A stretch of DNA of 64,000 nucleotides from Bolinopsis microptera (lineage: Eukaryota > Ctenophora > Tentaculata > Lobata > Bolinopsidae): contig NC_087084.1 in the NCBI RefSeq assembly GCF_026151205.1, forward strand, positions 13,233,453-13,297,452. Direction: 5' to 3'. Position numbers and translations under genes: made by a program. The notes beneath the pieces are model-generated. The model was not told where the DNA came from. It saw only the letters and a list, made by a program, of their open reading frames with translations, and made no database searches. This document shows, piece after piece, positions 46,113 to 63,418 of this stretch (position 1 is the stretch's first letter; the number at the start of each line of letters is the position of its first letter).

Positions 46113-49100
46113 ATGGATAACGCGGATCTAGAGTCCCTAAAACTGGTTCCCGGTCGTCTGAATCCCAAGTTCTCAGCGTCCCTAACAGAGTACAATGTGT
46201 TACTCAGCAGTGCGGCTACACAAGTGCGGGTAGAAGGCCTGACTGCAGATAGTGGAGCTAGTTACAGTGTTAAAGGTGCTGAGGGGGAACGAACTGTGCC
46301 GCTTAATGAGGGTATCAACTACGTTCACATTGAGGTCTCCGCTATTGACGGCACCACCAAAAATTACACAATAACTGTCACTAAACTAGCTGCTAACCTA
46401 GCTGAGCTGCTAAATCTGAATCTGGTTCCTGGCAGGTTAGACAGAGCGTACCAGAAGAAGATAAGTGAGTATTACGCTACACTTGGGTGGGCGGTTAATC
46501 AGGTGACAGTGAAGCCGGTGAAGCAGGACCCTAAGATGACGGTGGATATAGACGGGAACCCTCCAGCGACTCCAGTACAGCTGCAGAGCATGGAGACCAC
46601 AGTTAAAATCAATGTTTTGTCCCCAGATCAAAGTACCACGAAAGTCTACACGCTGCACCTGCTGAAAGAGGATACTGGTTACAGACCAGAGACCGCTAAG
46701 ACTGATTTGTTGTGTGGAGTTTGCTCGAGTTTGTATCAGTGCCCAAGGAGACTGCTCCAGTGTTCTCACAGTTTCTGTACGGTTTGTCTGGCTGTGAGTC
46801 AGCGGACTGATAAGAAATGCCCAACGTGCAGCGCTCCCCCACCCGTTGATCCACCGTTTGATGATGTTGACAGTGAGCTGCGTGAAAAACTCCTCTCTGT
46901 GGAAGTGCTGTGTTTTTATTGCGGCACTGGTGTGGGTAGTCCCGGACTCTTAGAACACGCTGTGGAATGTTCTGAGAGACTGGTCACGTGTCCCACATGT
47001 GATCAAGACGTGAAATACAGCACTTTAGAACACAGTGATTGCACTGCGTCTTGTAAACTGTGCGGAAAGAAGTACTTGGCGGAGGAGGAGGATATCCATT
47101 CTAAGATGTGCCTTCAGGGAGAAAGTCTTCCAAACATTGAGCTCACAGATTACAAGGCAGGAGTCAGTGATTGGGAAAAGAAGTTGAGAGTTGATACCGC
47201 AGATGATTTCAAAGAGCTTTATGAATCGGGGGAGAAGTGGGAGAAGGAGTACCACAAAGTTCGCTCCACCACTTCTGATGTCGTTGAAGTGAAGAAGAGG
47301 TTGGAAAGTGCTGCCCATGCCTATGCTAATGCTGTAGTTGCAAACTCCAAATCTTATAATGCACATAGCAGATTAGGTATTGTGTTGGAAGAGATTCATT
47401 ATGTTGAGGATTTGATGGCAAAGCTAAAAAAGGAAAAGGTTGACGCATCAGCATCAAATAAGGAAGCAAAGGACAGCAGCAAGTTCGAAGAAATTGACGC
47501 TATTTGCCAATTACATGGAGTAGCTAAAACAGCACCACTCAGTGAAAAACTCAAGGCAATCGACATGGAGTACCATTCGTTAAAAGAAAAAGGAGACTCC
47601 TTCAGAGCTGATCGAGTTCAAGAACTTTACGCCTGGAAATCCAAACAGGCTACAACAGCAGAAAAGATTTCGCTCATAGCTGGAAGTGATGAAACATACC
47701 TCGGCAAGGCAGGGAGAAAGTACGAGGACGCAGTATCAAAGGAACCTTCCTCGTTTAGTTGCAATTACTTGCTGGGATGGAGCTACCTCCAACAGTTCAG
47801 ATATGAAGAAGCAGTTACAAGATTCCGGGTCTGTATCGGTGCCAAACCTCTCCTCAAACATGTTAGATATTTGCTGGGGATAGCGTTGTCAAAGTGTCCT
47901 GGAGATGATCACGAGGATGAAGCTATCAGGTATCTCAAGCAGGGGGTACTGTCTTACCAACACTGGATATCATGCCAGAAAAGAGAGGGGGCTAACAGAA
48001 GTCAAGTAATGGCAGCTGAAACTGAGTTCTCATTATACAAACCTCAATATTTGCGTGGCTTCATATATCTTGCTCGACTCACGGATAGTAAGGAGGAGAA
48101 GAGAAAACTATTGCTTTCAGTAGTCTACTTGGTGCCAAGAATCCTTCAAACTTTGGAGCAAAGAGGCCAAACCTACAAGAGCATAGAGGCCGTTCAGTTT
48201 TCTGCCATGGATAAACTTCTCTCAATCGTGGAAAAGGACGAAATACAGACGTTTTGTAAGAGACTTAGTGCTCTTTTATCTAAAAGTCCCGACTCAGGGA
48301 ACAGAAAGCTACTTGAGCTACAAGTTGAGACTAGCAAGAAGTGTGTCGTGGTAGAAGCAAGCAATGGTCAGTCTCTCACCACTCTTGGAGATTCGTTGCT
48401 AACCTTGTATGAGATGACTGATTCGAAAACACTGTTGAAAGAGTCAGAACAGTGTTTCCGTGCTGCTATTCAAGTTGAGGGCAAGGCGATCAAGTCTGAA
48501 GCCGTTCCCGAGCAAGTGAAAGAAATGCAGTGGTATAAAGAGAAAACTGGTGTTAAATCTCCCCCTGCTGCAGCTGGAAAGGGGGCCAGGGGAGGTCCTG
48601 CTAAAAGAGGAGCCCCCGCTGCGAGAGGTGCTGCAAAGGGAGGTGCAGCAAGAGGTGGTGCAGCAAGAGGTGGTGCAGCAGCTGGGAAAGGTGCAGCACG
48701 TGGCCGTGGTGGAGCTAGAGGCGCTGCAGCAGGAGCAGCACGTGGAGGCAAAGCTGCACACAGTTGTGTCCCTGCTAAGGGTGGTAAGGAAGAAAAGAAA
48801 CCAGAGACAGAGCCAGGGAATGAAACAGGTCCTTTAAACGAGAAGAGTGCTGGACCCAGATTAGGGCTGGCCAGAGTGTTGAGTCTGAATGATGGAAATA
48901 ACGTTGAGGAGAGGAAGGCACTTTATAACGAGGTTATTGTGATAGCGAGTGGTTTACATGATGCGTATATTGAACTGGGTGAGCTGTGTCGGGGCACCAT
49001 GGAGGCTGTGGATGTTTACGATAAGTTCCCCTTCAGCGAGGAGTTGACATTCGATGATGCGTACATTTTTGGAGAAATGGTTCAAATTCTTATGAAGCTG

Positions 49101-49304
49101 GAGGAATTTGATGATCCCCGACTGGAGAAGTCCCTGATGGGATATGGAAGTGTCATGGGGTGGAACAGCCTGGAATCCTACGTTCCAAAGCTTGAGAATG
49201 CTTTTAAAACAGCTTTGTTGAGGAACGTGTATTGTCATGTCAACAAGAAATGCGCGGAGGATGATGATGTTAAGCAGTATTTCAAGATTAAACTGTGGAA
49301 CTGA
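46113..49304 (+). CDS. cadherin-like beta-sandwich/RING/TRAF-type zinc/TPR-like protein, single exon
   Basis: One uninterrupted frame of 1,063 codons; the ATG is the first in frame after a TAA 42 bases upstream. Residues 1-95 and about 98-190 are two copies of a domain starting LxxLxLVPGRL and ending in TKNYTITV or TKVYTLHL, the pattern of cadherin-like beta-sandwich domains (PF12733 type). Residues about 199-240 form a C3HC4 RING (CGVC, CSHSFCTVCL, CPTC). Further Cys/His pairs up to about 332 resemble TRAF-type zinc fingers. From about 390 to 800 the protein is helical with TPR-like repeats (LGWSYLQQFRYEEAVTRF). About 815-890 is a low-complexity Ala/Gly/Arg tract, then a conserved-looking helical C-terminus. 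A RING suggests ubiquitin-ligase activity, but this is inference. I know no named orthologue. It lacks introns, unlike its neighbours. Confidence 0.9.
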   Translation: MDNADLESLKLVPGRLNPKFSASLTEYNVLLSSAATQVRVEGLTADSGASYSVKGAEGERTVPLNEGINYVHIEVSAIDGTTKNYTITVTKLAANLAELLNLNLVPGRLDRAYQKKISEYYATLGWAVNQVTVKPVKQDPKMTVDIDGNPPATPVQLQSMETTVKINVLSPDQSTTKVYTLHLLKEDTGYRPETAKTDLLCGVCSSLYQCPRRLLQCSHSFCTVCLAVSQRTDKKCPTCSAPPPVDPPFDDVDSELREKLLSVEVLCFYCGTGVGSPGLLEHAVECSERLVTCPTCDQDVKYSTLEHSDCTASCKLCGKKYLAEEEDIHSKMCLQGESLPNIELTDYKAGVSDWEKKLRVDTADDFKELYESGEKWEKEYHKVRSTTSDVVEVKKRLESAAHAYANAVVANSKSYNAHSRLGIVLEEIHYVEDLMAKLKKEKVDASASNKEAKDSSKFEEIDAICQLHGVAKTAPLSEKLKAIDMEYHSLKEKGDSFRADRVQELYAWKSKQATTAEKISLIAGSDETYLGKAGRKYEDAVSKEPSSFSCNYLLGWSYLQQFRYEEAVTRFRVCIGAKPLLKHVRYLLGIALSKCPGDDHEDEAIRYLKQGVLSYQHWISCQKREGANRSQVMAAETEFSLYKPQYLRGFIYLARLTDSKEEKRKLLLSVVYLVPRILQTLEQRGQTYKSIEAVQFSAMDKLLSIVEKDEIQTFCKRLSALLSKSPDSGNRKLLELQVETSKKCVVVEASNGQSLTTLGDSLLTLYEMTDSKTLLKESEQCFRAAIQVEGKAIKSEAVPEQVKEMQWYKEKTGVKSPPAAAGKGARGGPAKRGAPAARGAAKGGAARGGAARGGAAAGKGAARGRGGARGAAAGAARGGKAAHSCVPAKGGKEEKKPETEPGNETGPLNEKSAGPRLGLARVLSLNDGNNVEERKALYNEVIVIASGLHDAYIELGELCRGTMEAVDVYDKFPFSEELTFDDAYIFGEMVQILMKLEEFDDPRLEKSLMGYGSVMGWNSLESYVPKLENAFKTALLRNVYCHVNKKCAEDDDVKQYFKIKLWN

Positions 49305-50979: not shown

Positions 50980-53900
50980 ATGACAATAAGGCTTAATGGA
51001 AGACTGATAAAGAAGATTGTACTATATGGAGCAGTCATATTTGCAGTAGTCCTCCTATTATCACAGTTTCACTCTCCCATCCATATACAGGTTAGTGTTT
51101 ATTTGATATACAGGTTAGTGTTTATTCGATATACAGGTTAGTGTTTATTTGATTATATACTAGAGGTTAGTGTTTATTTGAGGATACTGTAGATTTTAGA
51201 AATGAGTTGAACTTGAATTATGGTAATGTTTGATGAGAATATAAGTATCAAAAATTCAAATTTTATCATGAATACAATATCCCTTTCTAAGTATTCAATA
51301 TCAGATTAGGTTTAGAGTTGAGATAATATGTATGATCTAGAAAAATATTAATTCCTACATTACAGCATTTTCACACATAGTTTCAGATGACACGTGTACA
51401 GTGTTTACGTGACACATGACTTTACATGATACTACAAAGTTATGTACATACATTTTGTACATACATTATGTACATACATTATGTACATACATTATGTACA
51501 TAAATTATAAATGTACATTAATTACACAGTGTTATGCACCAAACCATATTACATCGCACACTCAACATTACCCAACACGACGTGGCTAATATATCGGGTA
51601 TCGTATTATACAATTATATCCAGTATCATCAACTTATAACGGGATATCGTATGTCAGGTAAAAGTCCTTGACTTAGATTCTATTTCAGGTAAAAGTCCCC
51701 GACCCAGAAGACAGTACCCAAAGATTAACAGAAAACCCCGGGGACAAGATACCCCTTCCCATACCCCGTCAGAGACTACCTGAGGCTAAAAAGAAGCCTG
51801 ATCTCATAGATGATAGGAACAAGTTCCAACCAGCTGTAAGTTTAATAATATAATATAAAGTAATAGTTATATAAGTAATATTAGTATAATATAAAGTTAT
51901 AGAATATATAAACTTAATAGTTGTATAAAGTTATATCTATCTAACAAAACTGTAAGCTTTTCAAAGATGTATTGTTGTTGGGAATGGGCTGTATATTATG
52001 TAAAATGTTGATCAGTAATATTATCGGTTAGAATTTCATTTATTTGATTCCAATCATCTTACAAATAATTAATAAACAACTCTATTTCAGGTGCAGAACA
52101 AGCTGCCGGAAAGCAGAACCTACGAGTACACGTGGGTAGAGAGTGCACGATTGCGTGAAGCACGGGAGGCTCTGGAGAAGAAGTTCCAGCAGAAAGTAAG
52201 AGATCTGGGTGATGATGCTGAGAAAGTAAAGAATCAGGTCTGTTTTAGGAGTTTGTACTGTTAGATATGTTTGGAGTATTGATAAATTGATATCATGAGG
52301 AATTAAAAGAGTTTAGTGCCTATTCTGCCTTTTAATGACTTAAATGTACATCTTCGTTGGGTATATTTTAATGTCTAAGCGTGTGATAAAGTTGGAATTT
52401 ATTTATTTTATTATCTTTTTAATAAATCAGAGTAAGCATATTTACCAGTTATAAGATATCTTCTGTATTAACGTATAGTTTAAATAATATGTAAATAGGA
52501 TAATTGATAATTACATAATTACATAATTGGTCAGATCAATAAAACATGTTCCAGGGTACGGTGAACATGGTTACAACTCTCACTTAGCCGAGACTATAGC
52601 GGTTAACAGAGATATCGGGGATAAACGGCATCCACAGTAAGTATTGTATATAATACGTTATAATGGTAGAGAAATGTTTATGTAGGAATGGGAAGATTAT
52701 AGTGGCTGTATTATAGTGGCCGTATAGTGACTGTTTAGTGGCTGTATCGTGGCCGTATAGTGACTGTTTAGTGGCCGTATCGTGACTGTTTAGTGGCCGT
52801 ATCGTGACTGTTTAGTGGCCGTATAGTGGCTGTATCGCGACATATCGTGGCTAAACCTAATCTCCCAATTTCTCAAATGTAGCTCAAACATACCTTATCC
52901 CACCCGGGTATGTGTATTAAAATATGTATAATATTAGTACATACATAAAATATTATGTGTTTATATGCAACAGGGGTGTTATACTTTCATTCCGTGTATT
53001 CTTAGTAGCAAGCATGCAGTTTTAACCAGTTGTAACTGGAGATAGGCTTATTTAAAAGTAAGCAAGTTAACAACGTCTACTACGTTTACTGGTAATTCAC
53101 AGTCGGCTGATCGTGACTTTACATTTGTTTGAGGTAATGTGTAACTTACACCTAAGCTGATCATGTAAAAGTGCTTACAAAAAGCACATACAATTACAAA
53201 GTACACACACCCCGCATTTTAAACATTCCAATCCTGTGTAATCCTACTTCATGCCTACCACCATCTCAATCCTGTGTAATCCTACTTCATGCCTACCACC
53301 ATCTCAACTCATTTTACAGTGGATACACCCACGACCCTATTTGTCATAGTTATTAGAGGTGATGTAATAATGTAGGCTTATTTAGTGACTAGGACTGGTG
53401 TGCCGAAAATTAGGTTAAGCAAAATGAAGTTCTGTATTATACAGGAGTGTGAATATATTATCATGTTTCTGATAACATAATGTTAAATTGTAAAACTAAT
53501 ATTAGGTATGACTTATGTTTGAGTTGTTATCCAGAACCTCTTGTTATTGAGAACCTCGAAAGCATTGGTTAAAAGTGGCTAACAAATTATAATCTGTGCA
53601 TCAATCTCAACAAATCAACATGAAAATTATCCTGACTATTTGCCAAGAAGTACAAAGTTTCATCCTCTATTTATTCATCTCACAGAGCGACTGTTATCAT
53701 CTGTTTTTCATCAGGTGTAAGAACGGAGGATGGCCCACAGACCTGCCAAGAGCGAGTATAATCTTCTGTTTTACTTCAGGTGTAAGAACGGAGGATGGCC
53801 CACAAGAGCGAGTATAATCTTCTGTTTTACTTCAGATGTAAGAACGGAGGATGGCCCACAGACCTGCCTAGAGCGAGTATAATCTTCTGTTTTACTTCAG

Positions 53901-56900
53901 ATGTAAGAACGGAGGATGGCCCACAGACCTGCCTAGAGCGAGTATAATCTTCTGTTTTACTTCAGGTGTAAGAACGGAGGATGGCCCACAAGAGCGAGTA
54001 TAATCTTCTGTTTTACTTCAGATGTAAGAACGGAGGATGGCCCACAGACCTGCCTAGAGCGAGTATAATCTTCTGTTTTACTTCAGGTGTAAGAACGGAG
54101 GATGGCCCACAAGAGCGAGTATAATCTTCTGTTTTACTTCAGATGTAAGAACGGAGGATGGCCCACAGACCTGCCTAGAGCGAGTATAATCTTCTGTTTT
54201 ACTTCAGATGTAAGAACGGAGGATGGCCCACAGACCTGCCAAGAGCGAGTATAATCTTCTGTTTTACTTCAGATGTAAGAACGGAGGATGGCCCACAGAC
54301 CTGCCTAGAGCGAGTATAATCTTCTGTTTTACTTCAGGTGTAAGAACGGAGGATGGCCCACAGACCTGCCAAGAGCGAGTATAATCTTCTGTTTTACTTC
54401 AGGTGTAAGAACGGAGGATGGCCCACAGACCTGCCTAGAGCGAGTATAATCTTCTGTTTTACTTCAGATGTAAGAACGGAGGATGGCCCACAGACCTACC
54501 AAGAGCGAGTATAATCTTCTGTTTTACTTCAGGTGTAAGAACGGAGGATGGCCCACAAGAGCGAGTATAATCTTCTGTTTTACTTCAGATGTAAGAACGG
54601 AGGATGGCCCACAGACCTGCCTAGAGCGAGTATAATCTTCTGTTTTACTTCAGGTGTAAGAACGGAGGATGGCCCACAGACCTGCCTAGAGCGAGTATAA
54701 TCTTCTGTTTTACTTCAGGTGTAAGAACGGAGGATGGCCCACAGACCTACCAAGAGCGAGTATAATCTTCTGTTTTACTTCAGGTGTAAGAACGGAGGAT
54801 GGCCCACAGACCTGCCTAGAGCGAGTATAATCTTCTGTTTTACTTCAGGTGTAAGAACGGAGGATGGCCCACAGACCTACCAAGAGCGAGTATAATCTTC
54901 TGTTTTCACAACGAGAACTTGATAGTATTATTAAGATCTATATACTCGGTACTAATGCGGACACCGCCGGAGCTATTGGCTGATATCATTGTCGTGGACG
55001 ACTCAAGTACAGAGAAACACCGTAAGTGTTTTTAACTGTTAATCTTCATTTTTTATCAAGCTGTTTTGAGGTAAAAATTTTAAAATGATCACAAGTTTTT
55101 CATCGATCGTGCATATTATGAATATAAATTCATGAATATACCAGATTTTCGGAAATCTGCCAGCATGAAGAGTATAGAAAAGTTGGTTACAGCAGAATCG
55201 CTACTGTACCCTACTGTAAACATGTAACAATATGTGTTACCAATATGTTACCAATATGTTACCAATATGTTACCACAAATTACATTATTATCCTTCATTA
55301 CGGTTGAAGTATCGGAATAGTTAGTGGGCTAAATTAGGACACCGTATTTTAAAATATTTGTATCATTGCAATGTAGGAGTAATAGGACTGTAGTCGAATG
55401 TACTGGTAGCTAGGAATGTACTGGTAGCTAGGAATGTACTGATAGCTAGGAATGTACTGGTAGCTAAGAATGTACTGGTAGCTAGGAATGTACTGGTAGC
55501 TAGGAATGTACTTATAGCTAGGAATGTACTGGTAGCTAAGAATGTACTGGTAGCTAGGAATGTACTGGTAGCTAGGAATGTACTGATAGCTAGGAATATA
55601 CTGGTAGCTAAGAATGTACTGGTAGCTAGGAATGTACTGGTAGCTAGGAATGTACTGGTAGCTAGGAATGTACTGGTAGCTAGGAATGTACTGGTAGCTA
55701 GGAATGTACTGGTAGCTAGGAATGTACTGGTAGCTAGGAATGTACTGGTAGCTAGGAATGTACTGGTAGCTAGGAATGTACTGGTAGCTAGGAATGTACT
55801 GGTAGCTAGGAATGTACTGGTAGCTAGGAATGTACTGGTAGCTAGGAATGTACTGGTAGCTAGGAATGTACTGGTAGCTAGGAATGTACTGGTAGCTAGG
55901 AATGTACTGGTAGCTAGGAATGTACTGGTAGCCAGGAATGTACTGGTAGCTAGGAATGTACTGGTAGCTAGGAATGTACTGGTAGCCAGGAATGTACTGG
56001 TAGCTAGGAATGTACTGGTAGCTAGGAATGTACTGGTAGCTAGGAATGTACTGGTAGCTAGGAATGTACTGGTAGCTAGGAATGTACTGGTAGCTAGGAA
56101 TGTACTGGTAGCTAGGAATGTACTGGTAGCTAGGAATGTACTGGTAGCTAGGAATGTACTGGTAGCTAGGAATGTACTGGTAAAATGATCACCAATATCT
56201 TCGAATGGAGTTGGTGGTCGACTCCGAAGCGATTTCACTAAATACAATTTCCTGATTGACAAGCTAACTTAATATTTTATCTATGAATTTTACTTGATAG
56301 AGTGCTTATCTTAAAGTTAAATGTTTTTACAGGCTCTAAGGATGTAGTTTTACGAAGATTTCAAGCCTTACGTTGTGTGTTTCCCTTCGTGTCCAAAAGC
56401 ATTATATAAATATTTTATCTTTAGAGAGAATGTTCGTGCCATAGTTTTGAGCAAATCCCCAAATAGAACAACAGATGATAACTTTCAATTATGTTACCAT
56501 GGCGGCTGATATATAACGTGCTCGATATTCATCTCACCTGCCCAAATGGATACATGACAAAATGTGGTAGTACCACAGCAACGTCAGAATTTACATTAAT
56601 ATTAAATTTACTTCTGAGTAATTTCAGACTAACAGTGAACACGCCCTGTTGAGCGGCGTATTATATAACACATCCCGCGGAATACCACGTAATTTGAAAT
56701 TTATATAAAAAGTAAATATTCTTAATCCAAAGAATTCACCCGATTTAGAGGCACGTGTTTAGACTTTAGTGACAGTTCGCAAAAACATAAAATATCGTAG
56801 TATCATGCTATCAGTATTATATTAGTAAACTTAATGACTACCATTATTTGGTGTCTTGATGATTTAATTTTGATTCTCAAGTTCGTGTATATTTTTTAAA

Positions 56901-59900
56901 TTGTAGTTTCGGCATGGTGATCAGTTCTACTGTCAGTAAACATTCCCGTGTACTTTTTTTTGCGATTGAGGAGCACTACCCAGAGGCATTACTCGGCACT
57001 AACGCCTTAAAATCTTTAATTACAATCAAATATAAATATATGCACACAATGTATAAAATATGAATAATGTATAAAATATGATTAAGCTATTAGCAAATTT
57101 AAATAGTTTTATTAAGAATTTCTAAATAACTCTTATCTCTTGACATAAATTTAGAACAGCGACACAGGGTCTGAAAAATGCGCGGTGATATTTTTATCTT
57201 GTAAATGAAAGTGAAATTGCGCGGTAGCGATAGCATTGTAAAAATTCTCGAAGATAGTCATATTTCGATCTGAGGTAAAAGTTTTGTTGCTCGTCACTAT
57301 CAACGTATGTTGTACCAAATTATTTAAGTTTCTAAAAGTACGAAATTTGAGTTGTTCCAGTCCTTGTCATCCGGGTTAAGTGCTTGTGCAGTGAGCACAT
57401 GCTTGTTGACTGTAGACTTGAATGAATTTAAGAATTTGTCTTGTAGGTAAGTCGTGACGTATTTTATGTCCTTGTTAATAAAGTTTACCGTTTTGTTATA
57501 TAACTTAGGCCCAATATAAGAAATGTTCTTGTCTGAATTACATAAACGGTTAAATGGTACTGCAAAGAACTTAGGTTCTCTTCTAGGTGCGTTTAAGTTT
57601 GAAAAAGTGAACATTCTTATTATATTTGGTGGTGCAGTGTTAGAATATACTTTGTGCATTAAGCTATTAAGCATAATATACATTTAGCTATCACGTTCGG
57701 TAAAGCTTATACTTCTAGTTTATTGAAAATTTTCTTTGTGTGTGAAGGTGTACTGTTCAGATCTTTGTCATAAAAATAGCGGTGGTATTGGTTGTCTGCA
57801 GCGCAAATGCCCTTTTTCTGGGCCGAGAAGACTCTTTTAACGGAGTTTAGTGATATTGTTCCCCAAACTGTGCAGCAATAGTACAAGTGAGACTGAACAA
57901 AGCTGTTGTATATCAACTTAAGTGCTTTGTTAGGTACTGAGCCTTTGAGTTTGTAGAGAATGCCCGCATTTCTAGATACTTTAGTGGCTAAATGTCTAAT
58001 GTGGTGGGCCCAATTTAGCTTGGTATCAATGATCACGCCAAGAAACTTTTCGTGATCACTTTGCTTTAATCGTTCACCTCCCATGTAGATTTCTATATCC
58101 TCAGTTTTCTTATTTGTAAAGATCATATATTTAGTTTTGCTAGCATTTAATTTAAGCCCGTTATTAGTAGCCCAATCAATTATCAAAGTCAGAATCTCAT
58201 TCACCATTGCATTAAGTCGTTCAAATGTATCTGTACTTATTATTAGGTTTGCGTCGTCAGCGAAATAAATATTTTTAGCTAAATTACTAATCTGAGGAAT
58301 GTCGTTGATGTAAATTATGGACAGAATTGGTCCAAGAATGGAGCCCTGTGGAACTCCGTAGTTAAGTTTAAGGTGAGAGGACTTGCAGTTGTTGACGCTC
58401 ACGTATTGCTCTCTATCGGTAAGATATGAGTCTAACCAAGATAAAGCCAACCCCCGAACTCCATAGTGCTCAAGTTTTCTTAAAAGGATACTTCTGTCAA
58501 CCATGTCAAAGGCCTTGCTGTAGTCCAAAAGAAGCAGCGCTGTGACCTGCTTTCTTTCTAGTGCCCTTTGGATATGGTTTTGGGCTTCTAGTAAAGCATG
58601 TTCGCAGCTATGCCCAGCCCGAAATCCGTATTGATCTGAGTCAAATAGGATTTTCTCTGTCTTTAAGTGATCTAATAGTCAAAAATTTTTGAGAAACTTC
58701 CAGTATGATTTAAAGTGTTTTTTAAAGTATTTGAACAAGCTTAACAAGTATTGTGTAAATTATTAATATATAAATATAAAGTATATAAAGTAAGTCCATA
58801 TAAAGCTTAACAAGTATTAAAGTATTAAGCTTGAGAATGCAAGTTATCTCAGCGAAAAATTTATTTCAGCAAAAATTCAAGTAGAAAGAAAAAATTCTCC
58901 GTAAAACGTATAAAATGATAAAGATTGTGGGTAGAATATAATATGGAGTATACTATATATGTAAATATGCGCGAAATATATATGTAGAATAATAGAATGT
59001 GTAAGATTAGTAAGTGTATTCACTAACCTTAGTACAGTCTCCTTCCAGCTGATATAAAAGAACCGTTAGACGAGATGGTTGCTCTGATGGGAGGTAAAGT
59101 TAAAGTTCTCAGACTCGACCAGAGGTCCGGACTCATTAAAGCTAGGATGGCTGGTGCTGCTTACAGTACTGGAGAGGTACTTTCACTTTCACTTTCACTT
59201 TCACTTTCGCAAACCTATTTATAAGTATCATATCTGTGCATTAAACATCCTCTTTTTTCTTGTTCCTTCTATATTCTCAAAATGTGTTTGTGGAGCTGAA
59301 GGGAGTGCAAAGAATTATAAATTAGAGCCGTTCCACTTACACACTTACCTTACATAAAATTACAATATACTGTATTAAAATACTCACTACTCTCAATTCT
59401 CTCAATTCTCTCCTACATTGAACCTTTAGTAGATGTAACCCTCCTTTAGTAGATGTAACCCTCCTTTAGTAGATGTAACCCTCCTTTAGTAGATGTAACC
59501 CTCCTTTAGTAGATGTAACCCTCCTTTAGTAGATGTAACCCTCATTTAGTAGATGTAACCCTCCTTTAGTAGATGTAACCCTCATTTAGTAGATGTAACC
59601 CTCCTTAAGTAGATGTAACCCTCCTTTAGTAGATGTAACCCTCCTTTAGTAGATGTAACCCTCCTTTAGTAGATGTAACCCTCCTTTAGTAGATGTAACC
59701 CTCATTTAGTAGATGTAACCCTCCTTAAGTAGATGTAACCCTCCTTTAGTAGATGTAACCCTCCTTAAGTAGATGTAACCCTCCTTTAGTAGATGTAACC
59801 CTCCTTTAGTAGATGTAACCCTCCTTTAGTAGATGTAACCCTCCTTTAGTAGATGTAACCCTCCTTTAGTAGATGTAACCCTCCTTTAGTAGATGTAACC

Positions 59901-62900
59901 CTCCTTTAGTAGATGTAACCCTCCTTTAGTAGATGTAACCCTCCTTTAGTAGATGTAACCCTCCTTTAGTAGATGTAACCCTCCTTTAGTAGATGTAACC
60001 CTCCTTTAGTAGATGTAACCCTCCTTTAGTAGATGTAACCCTCCTTTAGTAGATGTAACCCTCCTTTAGTAGATGTAACCCTCATTTAGTAGATGTAACC
60101 CTCCTTAAGTAGATGTAACACTCCTTTAGTAGATGTAACCCTCCTTTAGTAGATGTAACCCTCCTTTAGTAGATGTAACCCTCCTTTAGTAGATGTAACC
60201 CTCCTTTAGTAGATGTAACCCTCCTTTAGTAGATGTAACCCTCCTTTAGTAGATGTAACCCTCCTTTAGTAGATGTAACCCTCCTTTAGTAGATGTAACC
60301 CTCCTTTAGTAGATGTAACCCTCCTTTAGTAGATGTAACCCTCCTTTAGTAGATGTAACCCTCCTTTAGTAGATGTAACCCTCCTTTAGTAGATGTAACC
60401 CTCCTTTAGTAGATGTAACCCTCCTTTAGTAGATGTAACCCTCCTTTAGTAGATGTAACCCTCCTTTAGTAGATGTAACCCTCCTTTAGTAGATGTAACC
60501 CTCCTTTAGTAGATGTAACCCTCCTTTAGTAGATGTAACCCTCCTTTAGTAGATGTAACCCTCCTTTAGTAGATGTAACCCTCCTTTAGTAGATGTAACC
60601 CTCCTTTAGTAGATGTAACCCTCCTTTAGTAGATGTAACCCTCCTTTAGTAGATGTAACCCTCCTTTAGTAGATGTAACCCTCCTTTAGTAGATGTAACC
60701 CTCCTTTAGTAGATGTAACCCTCCTTTAGTAGATGTAACCCTCCTTTAGTAGATGTAACCCTCCTTTATTTTCAGGTCCTAGTTTTCTTTGATGCGCACA
60801 TTGAGTGCTCACACGGGTGGGCGGAGCCTATGATGGAGAGAATTTATCACGATCCTTCTACTGTTGTGTGTCCTTGTATTGATATTATCAAGGTAATTAG
60901 TGTAATTAGTAATTACTGTTGTGTGTCCTTGTATTGATATTATCAAGGTAATTAGTGTAATTAGTAATTACTGTTGTGTGTCCTTGTATTGATATTATCA
61001 AGGTAATTAGTGTAATTAGTAATTACTGTTGTGTGTCCTTGTATTGATATTATCAAGGTAATTAGTGTAATTAGTAATTACTGTTGTGTGTCCTTGTATT
61101 GATATTATCAAGGTAATTAGTGTGTCCTTGTATTGATATTATCAAGGTAATTAGTGTAATTAGTAATTACTGTTGTGTGTCCTTGTATTGATATTATCAA
61201 GGTAATTAGTGTGTCCTTGTATTGATATTATCAAGGTTATTAGTGTAATTAGTAATCACTGTTGTGTGTCCTTGTATTGATATTATCAAGGTAATTAGTG
61301 TAATTAGTAATTACTGTTGTGTGTCCTTGTATTGATATTATCAAGGTAATTAGTGTAATTAGTAATTACTGTTGTGTGTCCTTGTATTGATATTATCAAG
61401 GTAATTAGTGTAATTAGTAATTACTGTTGTGTGTCCTTGTATTGATATTATCAAGGTAATTAGTGTAATTAGTAATTACTGTTGTGTGTCCTTGTATTGA
61501 TATTATCAAGGTAATTAGTCAATTAGTCAATTAATCAGACGATTAGTTAAACAATGTTATAATTTTCTGATATAGTCTGACTTGAAGAATGTAATAGAAA
61601 CGTTGGTTAGCAGTGAACACAATATTATGATCGTTCACTGTACACACTGGTTAAGGGGACATACACCAAAAGCTTTTATGCCCTGGCCCTGCTGTTAACG
61701 TCATATTAAGAAAGTATACATAAAAACAATAAGATTTGATACATTAAAAATTATTTTTGAGGACCCGCACTTTCGAAAAAATAAATATTTTCTTTTTCGA
61801 AAATTTTAGAAATTTTGAGAAGTCTGTCACTGTAATACCGATATTTCAGTCATTTTAAACGTTTATTGACTGATTTTTTAACTGAACATTATTTACAATT
61901 CGTACAAGAAGCCCTTCAAAGGATTTTATAATTAAAATATAGATGACGAAGTTACAGGCCAAACAAGGTCGAGAGAAGCAAAATTGAAATTTTTGTAAAA
62001 ATCAAAGTTGTATATTTTACCATTCACCCAGGTCATAAGATATCGCTTCAAAAATTCTTGTGAGTGTAGCTGATGATCATATCCAACTTTTTGGAACAGG
62101 ATTTCTCTCAATTTTGAGTTTTAAAATTTAAGGTATGAAATGTGGCCTCAAACGACTTAGTAAAATTCATCGTAAAAAGGGCCAAACATGGCAGATTTAA
62201 GGCTTAAAATGCCTATAACTCAAAAAGTATCAGTTTTTTTGAAATAATTAATTAATTTAATAAATAATAAAGACTTCTCAAAATTTTCAAAATTTTCGAA
62301 AAAGAAAATATTTATTTTTTCGAAAGTGCGGGTCCTCAAAAATAATTTTTAATGTATCAAATCTTATTGTTTTTATGTATACTTTCTTAATATGACGTTA
62401 ACAGCAGGGCCAGGGCATAAAAGCTTTTGGTGTATGTCCCCTTAATGATATGATGAGCTGTAATCCAGTGGGCAGCGATTGTTATCATTTTCACTGGAAT
62501 GGTTCTCAAATTTCACCAAACATTACACGGTTACTTTACCGTTAATATATGAGACTCAGGACCCAGTACTCAATGTGCATATTGTATTCTTCTATTCATT
62601 AGAATCGATATCATTTGGGAATTCGCTTTTACTACTAGCAGGACTATTTTACACCACACAATGCAAAAATGGACACACTGCATTTATGTTAAGTTATGGT
62701 ATAATAACTCCTCGACTAAATGTCACTTTGAGAGCTTGGCAAATGTTAAATAAGATTGAAGAATATAATGAAATAGAATATGATAAAATGCATAAATCAT
62801 GATAGCCTACGTCAACAGTAGTAGCCTTCATCAACAGTCTAAAAGGGAGATAAAATTCACAACTTATTTGATAGCTAAATCAAAACCATATTTCGGGAGC

Positions 62901-63418
62901 AATCGATAACCAATTCAAGCTCAAATTTTAATAAAATAATGTACACTATGAATTATATTTAATTATTAATAATTCCCCCCTTAAATTCCAGCACGACACG
63001 ATGGAGTACCCCAACAATGCCCAACAAGAGATACAGAAAGGAGGGTTCCACTGGGGCCTCATTTACAAGTGGATACCTCTTAATGCTACTCAGCGAGCAC
63101 TAGGAATAACCGCACCCCAGGCGTACGTTAATTTTACACTGCTGTACTTTTATAACTCATATTATCAGGTTTTTCTGGAACATTTGAAATGGAGATTATG
63201 GAAAAATCAAAGTAGCAGCAGTAAGACAGATAATTAAAAATAATGATGATGTGTTATAATTTATCTTATAATTAAATATCTTATAAATTACAAACCCCAG
63301 GTCTGCCACAATGGCTGGAGGACTGTTCGGTATAGCTCGGGACTATTTCTACCAACTTGGCACTTACGACGAGGACATGAAAATCTGGGGCGGTGAAAAT
63401 CTCGAGATATCTTTCAGG
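50980..63418 (+). CDS. polypeptide N-acetylgalactosaminyltransferase, 5' part (3' end outside window)
   Basis: Golgi type II enzyme of the GALNT family, which starts mucin-type O-glycosylation by adding GalNAc to Ser/Thr. Exons 50980-51090, 51689-51835, 52091-52208 (or to 52237), 52555-52636, 54849-55021, 59049-59176, 60776-60892, 62992-63122 and 63301-63418 encode 375 residues so far. Exon 1 has a short basic tail and a membrane anchor ([18 protein letters not shown]). The catalytic domain shows [33 protein letters not shown], the metal-binding DxH motif in [16 protein letters not shown], and the hallmark [14 protein letters not shown]. Later catalytic exons and the ricin-type lectin domain would lie beyond the window. 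Exon 3 must end at 52208 (CTGG, then gtgatg) for the frame to continue; the better-looking site at 52237 would create an early stop. Introns 1, 4, 6 and 7 contain splice-site repeats. Confidence 0.93.
51083..51172 (+). repeat. repeated 5' splice sites after GALNT exon 1
   Basis: The exon end atatacag plus gttagtgtttatttg is repeated three times at 23-bp spacing, followed by a fourth diverged copy. Only the first donor keeps the reading frame with exon 2. Confidence 0.8.
51437..51510. repeat. (tacattatgtaca)n short tandem repeat in GALNT intron 1
   Basis: About five imperfect copies of a 14-bp tacatacattatg unit, partly palindromic through tgtaca. No function is apparent. Confidence 0.7.
52711..52830. 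repeat. short tandem repeat in GALNT intron 4
   Basis: Repeats of tagtggccgtatcgtgactg with small variants, about six copies. It lies within the intron, some 75 bases after the exon 4 donor. Confidence 0.75.
53708..54913 (+). repeat. 19-copy tandem array of GALNT exon 5 acceptor plus exon start
   Basis: Units of 65 bp (four units are 56 bp, lacking gacctgcc and one neighbouring base) each consist of a 3' splice site (gttttacttcag; tcatcag in the first) and about 58 bases of GALNT exon 5 coding sequence ([19 protein letters not shown] in the real exon). Unit starts are at 53715, 53780, 53836, 53901, 53966, 54022, 54087, 54143, 54208, 54273, 54338, 54403, 54468, 54533, 54589, 54654, 54719, 54784 and 54849. 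Only the last runs on into the full exon. Unit lengths are not multiples of three, so splicing to an upstream copy and reading through shifts the frame and hits TAA. Confidence 0.92.
55390..56190. repeat. 18-bp minisatellite in GALNT intron 5
   Basis: About 44 copies of an 18-mer around ctggtagctaggaatgta. On the minus strand it gives an artificial 299-codon frame repeating TFLATS. The unit length is a multiple of three and lacks stops in this frame, which explains the ORF. Confidence 0.9.
56263..57320. other. GALNT intron 5, no feature
   Basis: AT-rich sequence with no supported gene or repeat. Confidence 0.4.
57324..58680 (-). pseudogene. 5'-truncated LINE (jockey/CR1-type reverse transcriptase) with a frameshift
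   Basis: On the minus strand the frame opens at about 58680 ([17 protein letters not shown]) and continues through the RT core: [32 protein letters not shown] and the catalytic FADDANL. It then runs to [11 protein letters not shown] and thumb-region motifs before stopping at 57707. The C-terminal part continues in another frame (57683-57324, [10 protein letters not shown] and IGPKLYN), so one frameshift separates them. Endonuclease and N-terminal RT are missing, which is typical 5' truncation. It lies antisense in GALNT intron 5. Confidence 0.88.
59177..59211. repeat. (CACTTT)n at the GALNT exon 6 donor
   Basis: The donor gtactttcactttcac merges into four to five copies of cacttt, so the repeat starts within the 5' splice site. 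Confidence 0.75.
59430..60770. repeat. 20-bp minisatellite filling GALNT intron 6 up to the acceptor
   Basis: About 67 copies of a 20-mer, ccctcctttagtagatgtaa, with rare variants (ctcattt, cttaag). Each unit contains a pyrimidine tract and TAG. The last unit turns into ccctcctttattttcag, the acceptor of exon 7. Confidence 0.92.
60859..61520 (+). repeat. 13-copy tandem array of GALNT exon 7 end plus 5' splice site
   Basis: The last 34 bases of exon 7 (from tactgttgtgtgtcc to tattatcaag) and the donor gtaatt with about 16 intron bases are repeated at 56-bp spacing. Two shorter units retain only the tgtccttg-to-donor part. One copy has gttatt in place of gtaatt. Thirteen exon-donor junctions are visible; the first (60892) keeps the frame. 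Confidence 0.92.
61651..62445. mobile_element. TTAA-flanked element with about 170-bp inverted arms
   Basis: The left end GGGGACATACACCAAAAGC starting at 61655 is mirrored by the right end finishing at 62441; both are flanked by TTAA (61651-61654, 62442-62445). The arms are nearly identical for about 170 bases. TTAA targets suggest piggyBac-type mobilisation. It has no coding capacity and differs in TIR sequence from the TTAA element at 20998-23070. Confidence 0.7.
62446..62991. other. GALNT intron 7, distal part
   Basis: An open frame at 62479-62802 exists but has no recognised motif and lies between two confirmed GALNT exons, so I do not call it a gene. Confidence 0.4.

What the first reader, a model, noticed from the sequence alone, without database searches (positions are those of the whole stretch)
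53708..54913. Nineteen tandem copies of a 3' splice site plus exon start in a GALNT gene
A 65/56-bp unit made of the acceptor and the first coding bases of exon 5 is repeated 19 times, and only the last copy continues into the exon. Each unit is a potential splice acceptor. Units are not multiples of three, so reading through upstream copies gives a stop. The spliceosome must favour the last copy, or splice out the others as recursive or cryptic exons, or waste much of its transcript. The array may act as a splicing decoy or a rate control for an O-glycosylation enzyme.
Basis: partly seen in the sequence, partly recalled or inferred. Interest (0 to 1): 0.92.

Follow-up and report, generated by a model that had tools for sequence, protein, structure and literature searches.

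The report
Splice-junction minisatellite in ctenophore GALNT gene
A gene for a sugar-adding enzyme, probably from a comb jelly, carries 19 back-to-back copies of the spot where one exon begins, a kind of repeat known from lancelets ("mirages"); this gene has more of them at other exon edges, and the genome seems rich in them, so it is a natural test of how cells choose the right splice site.

Summary
In detail: 19 near-identical copies of a 3' splice site plus the first 58 nt of a GALNT exon lie head to tail at 53715-54906, and only the last runs on into the exon. 18 of the 19 acceptors would give a stop about 100 nt on. It is of a known kind: "mirages", minisatellites spanning exon-intron boundaries, described in amphioxus and reported not to disturb splicing there. 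The genome (264.65 Mb; homeodomains found, nuclear-receptor zinc fingers not) is most likely a ctenophore, size-matched to Bolinopsis microptera. There, tandem donor motifs outnumber reversed controls 43-fold (AGGTAAGT) and 7-fold (AGGTGAGT), and 9 of 14 hand-picked array edges run into likely exons. In each GALNT case only the copy giving the shortest exon keeps the frame, so the best reading is a neutral minisatellite tolerated through exon-definition-like choice. Decoy or rate control is unsupported. No RNA could be examined.

The parts
53684..53714 (+). diverged part-copy at the left edge (reads [10 protein letters not shown]; holds the acceptor of copy 1)
   Evidence: 25 of 31 identical to the unit; best ungapped match elsewhere in 1-53600, + strand, is 19 of 31
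53715..54906 (+). exon 5 acceptor array: 19 exon starts, units 65/56 bp
52555..52636 (+). exon 4; donor CACA|gtaagt that must reach the right acceptor
54849..55021 (+). exon 5 proper, from the 19th acceptor
   Evidence: only acceptor with an open frame
50980..51090 (+). exon 1 (start codon, membrane anchor by eye)
51083..51181 (+). exon 1 donor array, 23-bp unit, 4 donors
   Evidence: only the first donor keeps an open frame
51655..51700 (+). exon 2 acceptor in two copies (first exon base 51658 and 51689)
   Evidence: 51658 gives a stop, 51689 is open
59049..59176 (+). exon 6; an ACTTTC x5 run starts 3 nt after its end
59423..60768 (+). 20-bp array, 67 copies, ending 7 nt before the exon 7 acceptor; holds pyrimidine tract and AG but no exon
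60776..60892 (+). exon 7
60859..61533 (+). exon 7 donor array: last 34 nt of exon plus GTAATTAGTG..., 55-bp (some 34-bp) units, 13 donors
62992..63122 (+). exon 8
63301..63418 (+). exon 9 ([11 protein letters not shown])

Best explanation
The array is a minisatellite born by tandem duplication across the intron 4/exon 5 boundary of an apparently intact ctenophore GALNT gene: a "mirage". The duplicated block runs from the acceptor to codon 19 of the exon, whose TATAATCTTCTGTTTT (coding IIFCF) serves as branch-point- and pyrimidine-tract-like sequence for the next copy, so each new copy arrives with a complete acceptor. Unequal exchange then spreads and homogenises copies. Splicing is expected to use the exon-proximal copy (54849), because only that acceptor pairs over a short 173-nt exon with the donor at 55021; the other 18 are read as intron. 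Shown: array, breakpoints, homology, frames, recurrence. Inferred: the splicing choice, neutrality, unequal exchange.
For: Array and unit anatomy. Gene: 334-aa catalytic piece matches GALNT1 8v9q at 9.1e-105, lectin piece PF00652 at 5e-25. In four arrays of this gene only the exon-proximal site keeps an open frame: 1 of 19, 1 of 13, 1 of 4, 1 of 2. Copies 17 and 19 share the same variants and 16 and 18 likewise, as if a two-unit block including the coding copy had duplicated. All 3 single-base variants among copies are synonymous and the 9-nt deletion is in frame, against 37 of 174 possible changes synonymous (P about 0.01, or 0.003 with the frame), as if variants pass through the coding copy. 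A paralogous GALNT has an array of about 136-bp units at the matching junction: 6 exon starts, 5 with an acceptor, counted by eye. Genome-wide: AGGTAAGT pairs 1648 against 38 for the reversed motif, singles 10758 against 7965; AGGTGAGT pairs 1585 against 224. Array edges run into exons of ADAM-, dynein- and copine-type genes. Amphioxus mirages are reported to leave splicing normal (passages of PMC3087553 and PMC3902484).
Against: No RNA was available, so use of the last acceptor is unproven. Acceptors 2 to 19 have the same 31 upstream bases, so nothing local favours the last. In this gene arrays cover 36-38% of 50980-63418, and by covered length 3 of 15 junctions inside arrays is no more than chance (rolled-mask means 5.4-5.7; also not with tolerance of 10 or 25 nt). 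Only counting arrays by founding unit gives an excess (0.28 expected, 3 seen, P 0.003; 0.33 and 0.005 if the 52712 array is given a 55-bp unit). Two of three GALNT paralogue acceptors fetched (L089, L090) show no duplication in the about 170 nt before them.
Confidence: 0.72

Rival explanations
1. Splicing decoy or rate control: the extra acceptors capture spliceosomes and send a tuned share of transcripts to nonsense-mediated decay, setting enzyme level.
For: 18 of 19 acceptors would give an early stop, and local signals of copies 2 to 18 equal those of the last.
Against: Same kind of array at other junctions and in unrelated genes; the variants look like ordinary repeat turnover.
Confidence: 0.07
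2. Self-correcting (recursive or dual-specific) splicing: joining exon 4 (...CACA) to a G-type copy recreates CACA|GTGTAAG, a weak donor that can be spliced again to a later copy, so early errors are repaired until the last copy is reached.
For: 11 of 19 copies have AG|GT; dual-specific AGGT sites in tandem repeats are documented in human genes (abstract and passages of PMC10809524).
Against: 8 of 19 copies have AG|AT; GTGTAAG is a poor donor by general consensus (recalled); units of 56/65 nt may be too short as introns; the last copy carries the same donor-like sequence and would risk skipping of exon 5.
Confidence: 0.1
3. Assembly artefact: the true locus has one or few copies.
For: Read data not available here; if this is Bolinopsis microptera, the assembly was made with wtdbg from PacBio reads (passages of PMC10232365). 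In amphioxus one such array was wrongly assembled in the draft genome (supplement legend in PMC3087553).
Against: 1.2 kb is short for long reads; variant order is not periodic; several independent arrays in this gene and in a paralogue; one amphioxus case was upheld by re-sequencing (passage of PMC3902484).
Confidence: 0.06
4. The gene or this exon is no longer used, so the array is debris in a dying gene.
For: The exon 3/4 and exon 11/12 joins could not be settled.
Against: Exons 4 to 11 read on in one open family-like frame, and exons 12 and 13 are open; FDAHIE and [11 protein letters not shown] kept; exon 5 encodes the conserved start of the catalytic fold.
Confidence: 0.05

Closest known systems
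Mirage minisatellites of amphioxus (Adh3, globins BflGb6 and BflGb9, PGBD5, troponin C)
   Same: Tandem copies of an exon-intron boundary, donor or acceptor side, AG/GT signals in many units, homogenised inside and not at the cluster boundary (passages)
   Different: Another phylum (ctenophore, inferred); 19 and 13 copies against 3 and 6 in the two BflGb6 haplotypes; four junctions of one gene; genome-wide excess counted here
Dual-specific AGGT splice sites in tandem repeats (human UBC, VCX3A)
   Same: AG|GT at repeat boundaries in 11 of 19 copies
   Different: In UBC the sites delimit each ubiquitin monomer and isoforms splice stochastically (abstract); here units are 65/56 nt and break the frame
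Intron gain by tandem genomic duplication (Rogers model; potato RdRp case)
   Same: Duplication of sequence holding splice signals
   Different: Here an existing junction is multiplied; no new intron is shown. PMC4974935 seen only in the search listing with the start of its abstract; the Rogers model as cited

Membership tests
[quoted passage not shown]
   58 nt of exon plus 7 nt of acceptor in each full unit
mirage minisatellite | units carry AG/GT splice signals | tested here: met
   AG in 19 of 19, AG|GT in 11 of 19; the literature asks it of many, not all, units
mirage minisatellite | homogenised core, divergent edge unit | tested here: met
   core copies differ at 3 bases and one deletion; left part-copy 25 of 31
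mirage minisatellite | copy number varies between haplotypes or somatically | not testable with these tools
   one assembly, no reads
mirage minisatellite | regular splicing undisturbed | not testable with these tools
   no RNA data
dual-specific splice-site repeat (UBC type) | AGGT at each repeat boundary | tested here: not met
   11 of 19 only
dual-specific splice-site repeat (UBC type) | repeat units read through in frame | tested here: not met
   units 65/56; stop in the second copy
GALNT (polypeptide GalNAc-transferase) | GT2-type catalytic domain plus ricin-B lectin domain | tested here: met
   PF00535 5.6e-28, PF00652 5e-25, PDB GALNT1 9.1e-105

The most novel reading that the evidence does not exclude
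In this ctenophore lineage splice junctions are themselves hot spots for minisatellite birth: arrays arise at donors and acceptors far more often than at equally common non-splice words and recur at the same junction in paralogues, perhaps because splice signals or co-transcriptional events at them seed tandem duplication, while exon definition makes the extra copies harmless. The arrays would then feed back into coding sequence by exchange with the exon copy.
Probability: 0.3. Interest if true: 0.75.

Novelty: new member of a known kind. Interest (0 to 1): 0.5.

Why it matters
Each array is a natural series of near-identical competing splice sites at graded distances, acceptor side in one exon and donor side in another of the same gene. 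In the four GALNT arrays the only frame-keeping site is the one that makes the shortest exon, and on the acceptor side not the first one met from the upstream donor, so long-read cDNA could test exon definition against first-come choice directly, in a lineage that may be sister to all other animals. It would also show that amphioxus mirages are not a lancelet oddity, and bear on how splice-site repeats turn over and may seed new introns.

Tried and rejected
Rfam on the window: 0 matches. COI to name the organism: not completed. A processed copy of the gene that would show the mRNA: in which only the best candidates are scored, lists nothing above 71% identity outside the gene itself. Enrichment of arrays at this gene's junctions by covered length: not significant. 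A 21-base match between the paralogue's upstream intron and the GALNT unit scores 30 against a shuffled maximum of 26 in 2000, but the reverse complements of 232 window pieces reach 31, so an inherited old array is not claimed. Acceptor motif pairs (498 against 119) are dominated by one array at C3:10522198 and its copy at C3:10725660, so they weigh little. Splice-site strength by a trained matrix: not done, since acceptors 2 to 19 are locally identical. Motif singles include array copies, so the excess per real site is only rough. The script failed on a file name; exon 10 was not found by its string and was read.
Full report
WHAT IS THERE. The window is C13:13233453-13297452 of a 264.65 Mb genome in 232 contigs. 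At 53715-54906 lie 19 copies of [G/A]TGTAAGAACGGAGGATGGCCCACAGACCT.CC.AGAGCGAGTATAATCTTCTGTTTT, 18 of them followed by ACTTCAG; the 18 spacings are 65 (14) or 56 (4), and only the 19th runs on into CACAACGAGAAC....

THE GENE. Exons 1 to 9 lie in the window and 10 to 13 downstream in L039. The catalytic piece (exons 4 to 11, 334 aa, exon 10 put in by eye) matches GALNT1 (8v9q, 9.1e-105), GALNT9 and others and Pfam Glycos_transf_2 (5.6e-28); exons 12 and 13 give Ricin_B_lectin (5e-25). Exon 4 ends CACA and exon 5 begins G TGT AAG, so the split codon is CAG or CAA, both Gln. The joins of exon 3 to 4 and 11 to 12 were not settled. The exon start is kept in paralogues: three matches elsewhere in the genome begin at the same query residue 27 (C13:14308430, C1:16264559, C13:1846229).

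FRAMES. With acceptors 1 to 18 the message meets a stop 100 or 109 nt after the acceptor; with acceptor 19 it stays open (exons 4 to 9 joined). Exon length would run from 1307 nt (copy 1) down to 173 nt (copy 19).

MORE ARRAYS IN THE SAME GENE. Exon 7's last 34 nt plus its donor GTAATTAGTG are repeated at 60859-61533 with 13 donors, of which only the first (60892) keeps an open frame; exon 1's donor is repeated 4 times (51090, 51113, 51136, 51165), only the first open; exon 2's acceptor stands twice, only the second open. A 20-bp array of 67 copies ends 7 nt before the exon 7 acceptor and an ACTTTC run starts 3 nt after exon 6. So in these four arrays, on either side of an exon, the usable site is the exon-proximal one, which makes the shortest exon.

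IS THAT MORE THAN CHANCE? By covered length no: arrays fill 36-38% of the gene stretch, and 3 of 15 junctions inside arrays is below the rolled-mask means of 5.4-5.7; with 10 or 25 nt of tolerance it is still not above them. By founding unit yes: nine arrays, units picked by hand (sum 233), should hold 0.28 junctions and 3 do (P 0.003; 0.005 if the 52712 array is given 55 bp). The genome-wide counts carry more weight.

GENOME-WIDE. AGGTAAGT followed 12-42 nt later by AGGTAAGT: 725 + 923 matches, against 30 + 8 for the motif read backwards; single motifs 5220 + 5538 against 3981 + 3984. Pairs inside one long array count many times. By separate places, read from the capped listing: 12 on C1 up to 20.56 Mb (two of them the same sequence) against 18 control places in the whole genome, 8.6-fold per Mb if the listing is complete that far; the largest control array, C13:2435334, is itself a donor array on the other strand. 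AGGTGAGT pairs: 830 + 755 against 96 + 128, 7-fold. TTTTCAGG pairs: 285 + 213 against 47 + 72, mostly one array and its copy in the part listed.

ARE THEY AT EXONS? 14 array edges were fetched, chosen by hand and not at random. Nine run into a likely exon with about 10 nt or more of exon in the unit: L075, L076 (Reprolysin 4.7e-13 for a peptide joined from two exons; an ADAM), L077 (Sushi 2.5e-3, under cut-off), L078 (dynein heavy chain, PDB 2.9e-13 for the unchanged frame), L081 (MFS 7e-3, under cut-off), L082, L084 (copine-type acceptor on the minus strand, PDB BONZAI 1 2.6e-7; Pfam Copine 1.5e-4, under cut-off), L085, L087. L075, L082, L085 and L087 have no family match and rest on an open frame ending at a splice site (no PDB search for L082 and L085). 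Two abut a splice site with few exon bases (L086, L088), two show no exon (L079, L080), one is undecided because the piece lies wholly in the array (L083).

PARALOGUE. The GALNT gene at C13:1845300-1846340 has its own array at the matching junction: units of about 136 bp, 6 exon starts, 5 of them preceded by an acceptor, counted by eye. Two other paralogue acceptors (L089, L090) have no duplication in the about 170 nt fetched before them.

HOW IT FORMED. The exon block copied ends at TGTTTT, before CACAACGAG; joined to the old intron end it gives TATAATCTTCTGTTTTACTTCAG, so coding sequence for IIFCF doubles as branch-like and pyrimidine-rich sequence. The left edge holds an older copy, AGAGCGACTGTTATCATCTGTTTTTCATCAG, 25 of 31 identical; it reads RATVIICF, close to GALNT9's TDVIICFHNE (alignment), where the present exon has RASIIFCF. 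This suggests, but does not show, that the coding copy was overwritten by exchange with the array; against it, a paralogue (L013) also reads ASII there. All three single-base differences among copies are synonymous and the deletion is in frame, as expected if variants pass through the coding position.

WHICH ORGANISM. Homeodomain: 111 matches; nuclear-receptor zinc finger PF00105: 0 (no control genome rang, so absence is not proven). Nearly all matches fall on C1 to C13. Table 1 of PMC11797021 lists Bolinopsis microptera at 265 Mb and 13 chromosomes, though with 346 scaffolds against 232 contigs here (passages). That ctenophores lack this zinc finger is recalled. A ctenophore close to or identical with B. 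microptera is an inference.

KNOWN KIND. Tandem repeats spanning exon-intron boundaries in amphioxus were named mirages; Adh3 data and globin RT-PCR suggested normal splicing; cores are homogenised and cluster boundaries are not (passages of PMC3087553; PMC3902484; the 2002 Adh paper is not held). Searches for ctenophore with minisatellite and Mnemiopsis with splice site, tandem repeats, exon and intron gave 2 listings each, none on this by title; that is all I can say about print.

VERDICT. A real, striking member of a known kind, in a new lineage and in seemingly unusual abundance, with no evidence for a regulatory role.

Noticed in passing
window 61651-62445: 175-nt inverted repeat, 99% complementary, 445 nt apart, in intron 7: a likely MITE-type element.
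   Followed up: partly
window 57710-58678 (minus): Reverse-transcriptase reading frame (PF00078, 6.5e-29) inside intron 5, probably part of a non-LTR retroelement.
   Followed up: partly
window 46125-49304: Large single-exon gene with Cadherin-like sandwich (PF12733) and RING finger domains.
   Followed up: no
C3:10522198-10525883 and C3:10725660: Very long acceptor-containing array of 47-bp units, apparently present twice about 200 kb apart.
   Followed up: partly
C1:884700-885300 (L078): Dynein-like exon with an internal in-frame duplication of 57 codons next to the donor array.
   Followed up: partly
genome G000: At least 96 matches to PF00535 in the genome, many in single open frames of about 600 aa: an expanded glycosyltransferase set with many members that look intronless.
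   Followed up: no
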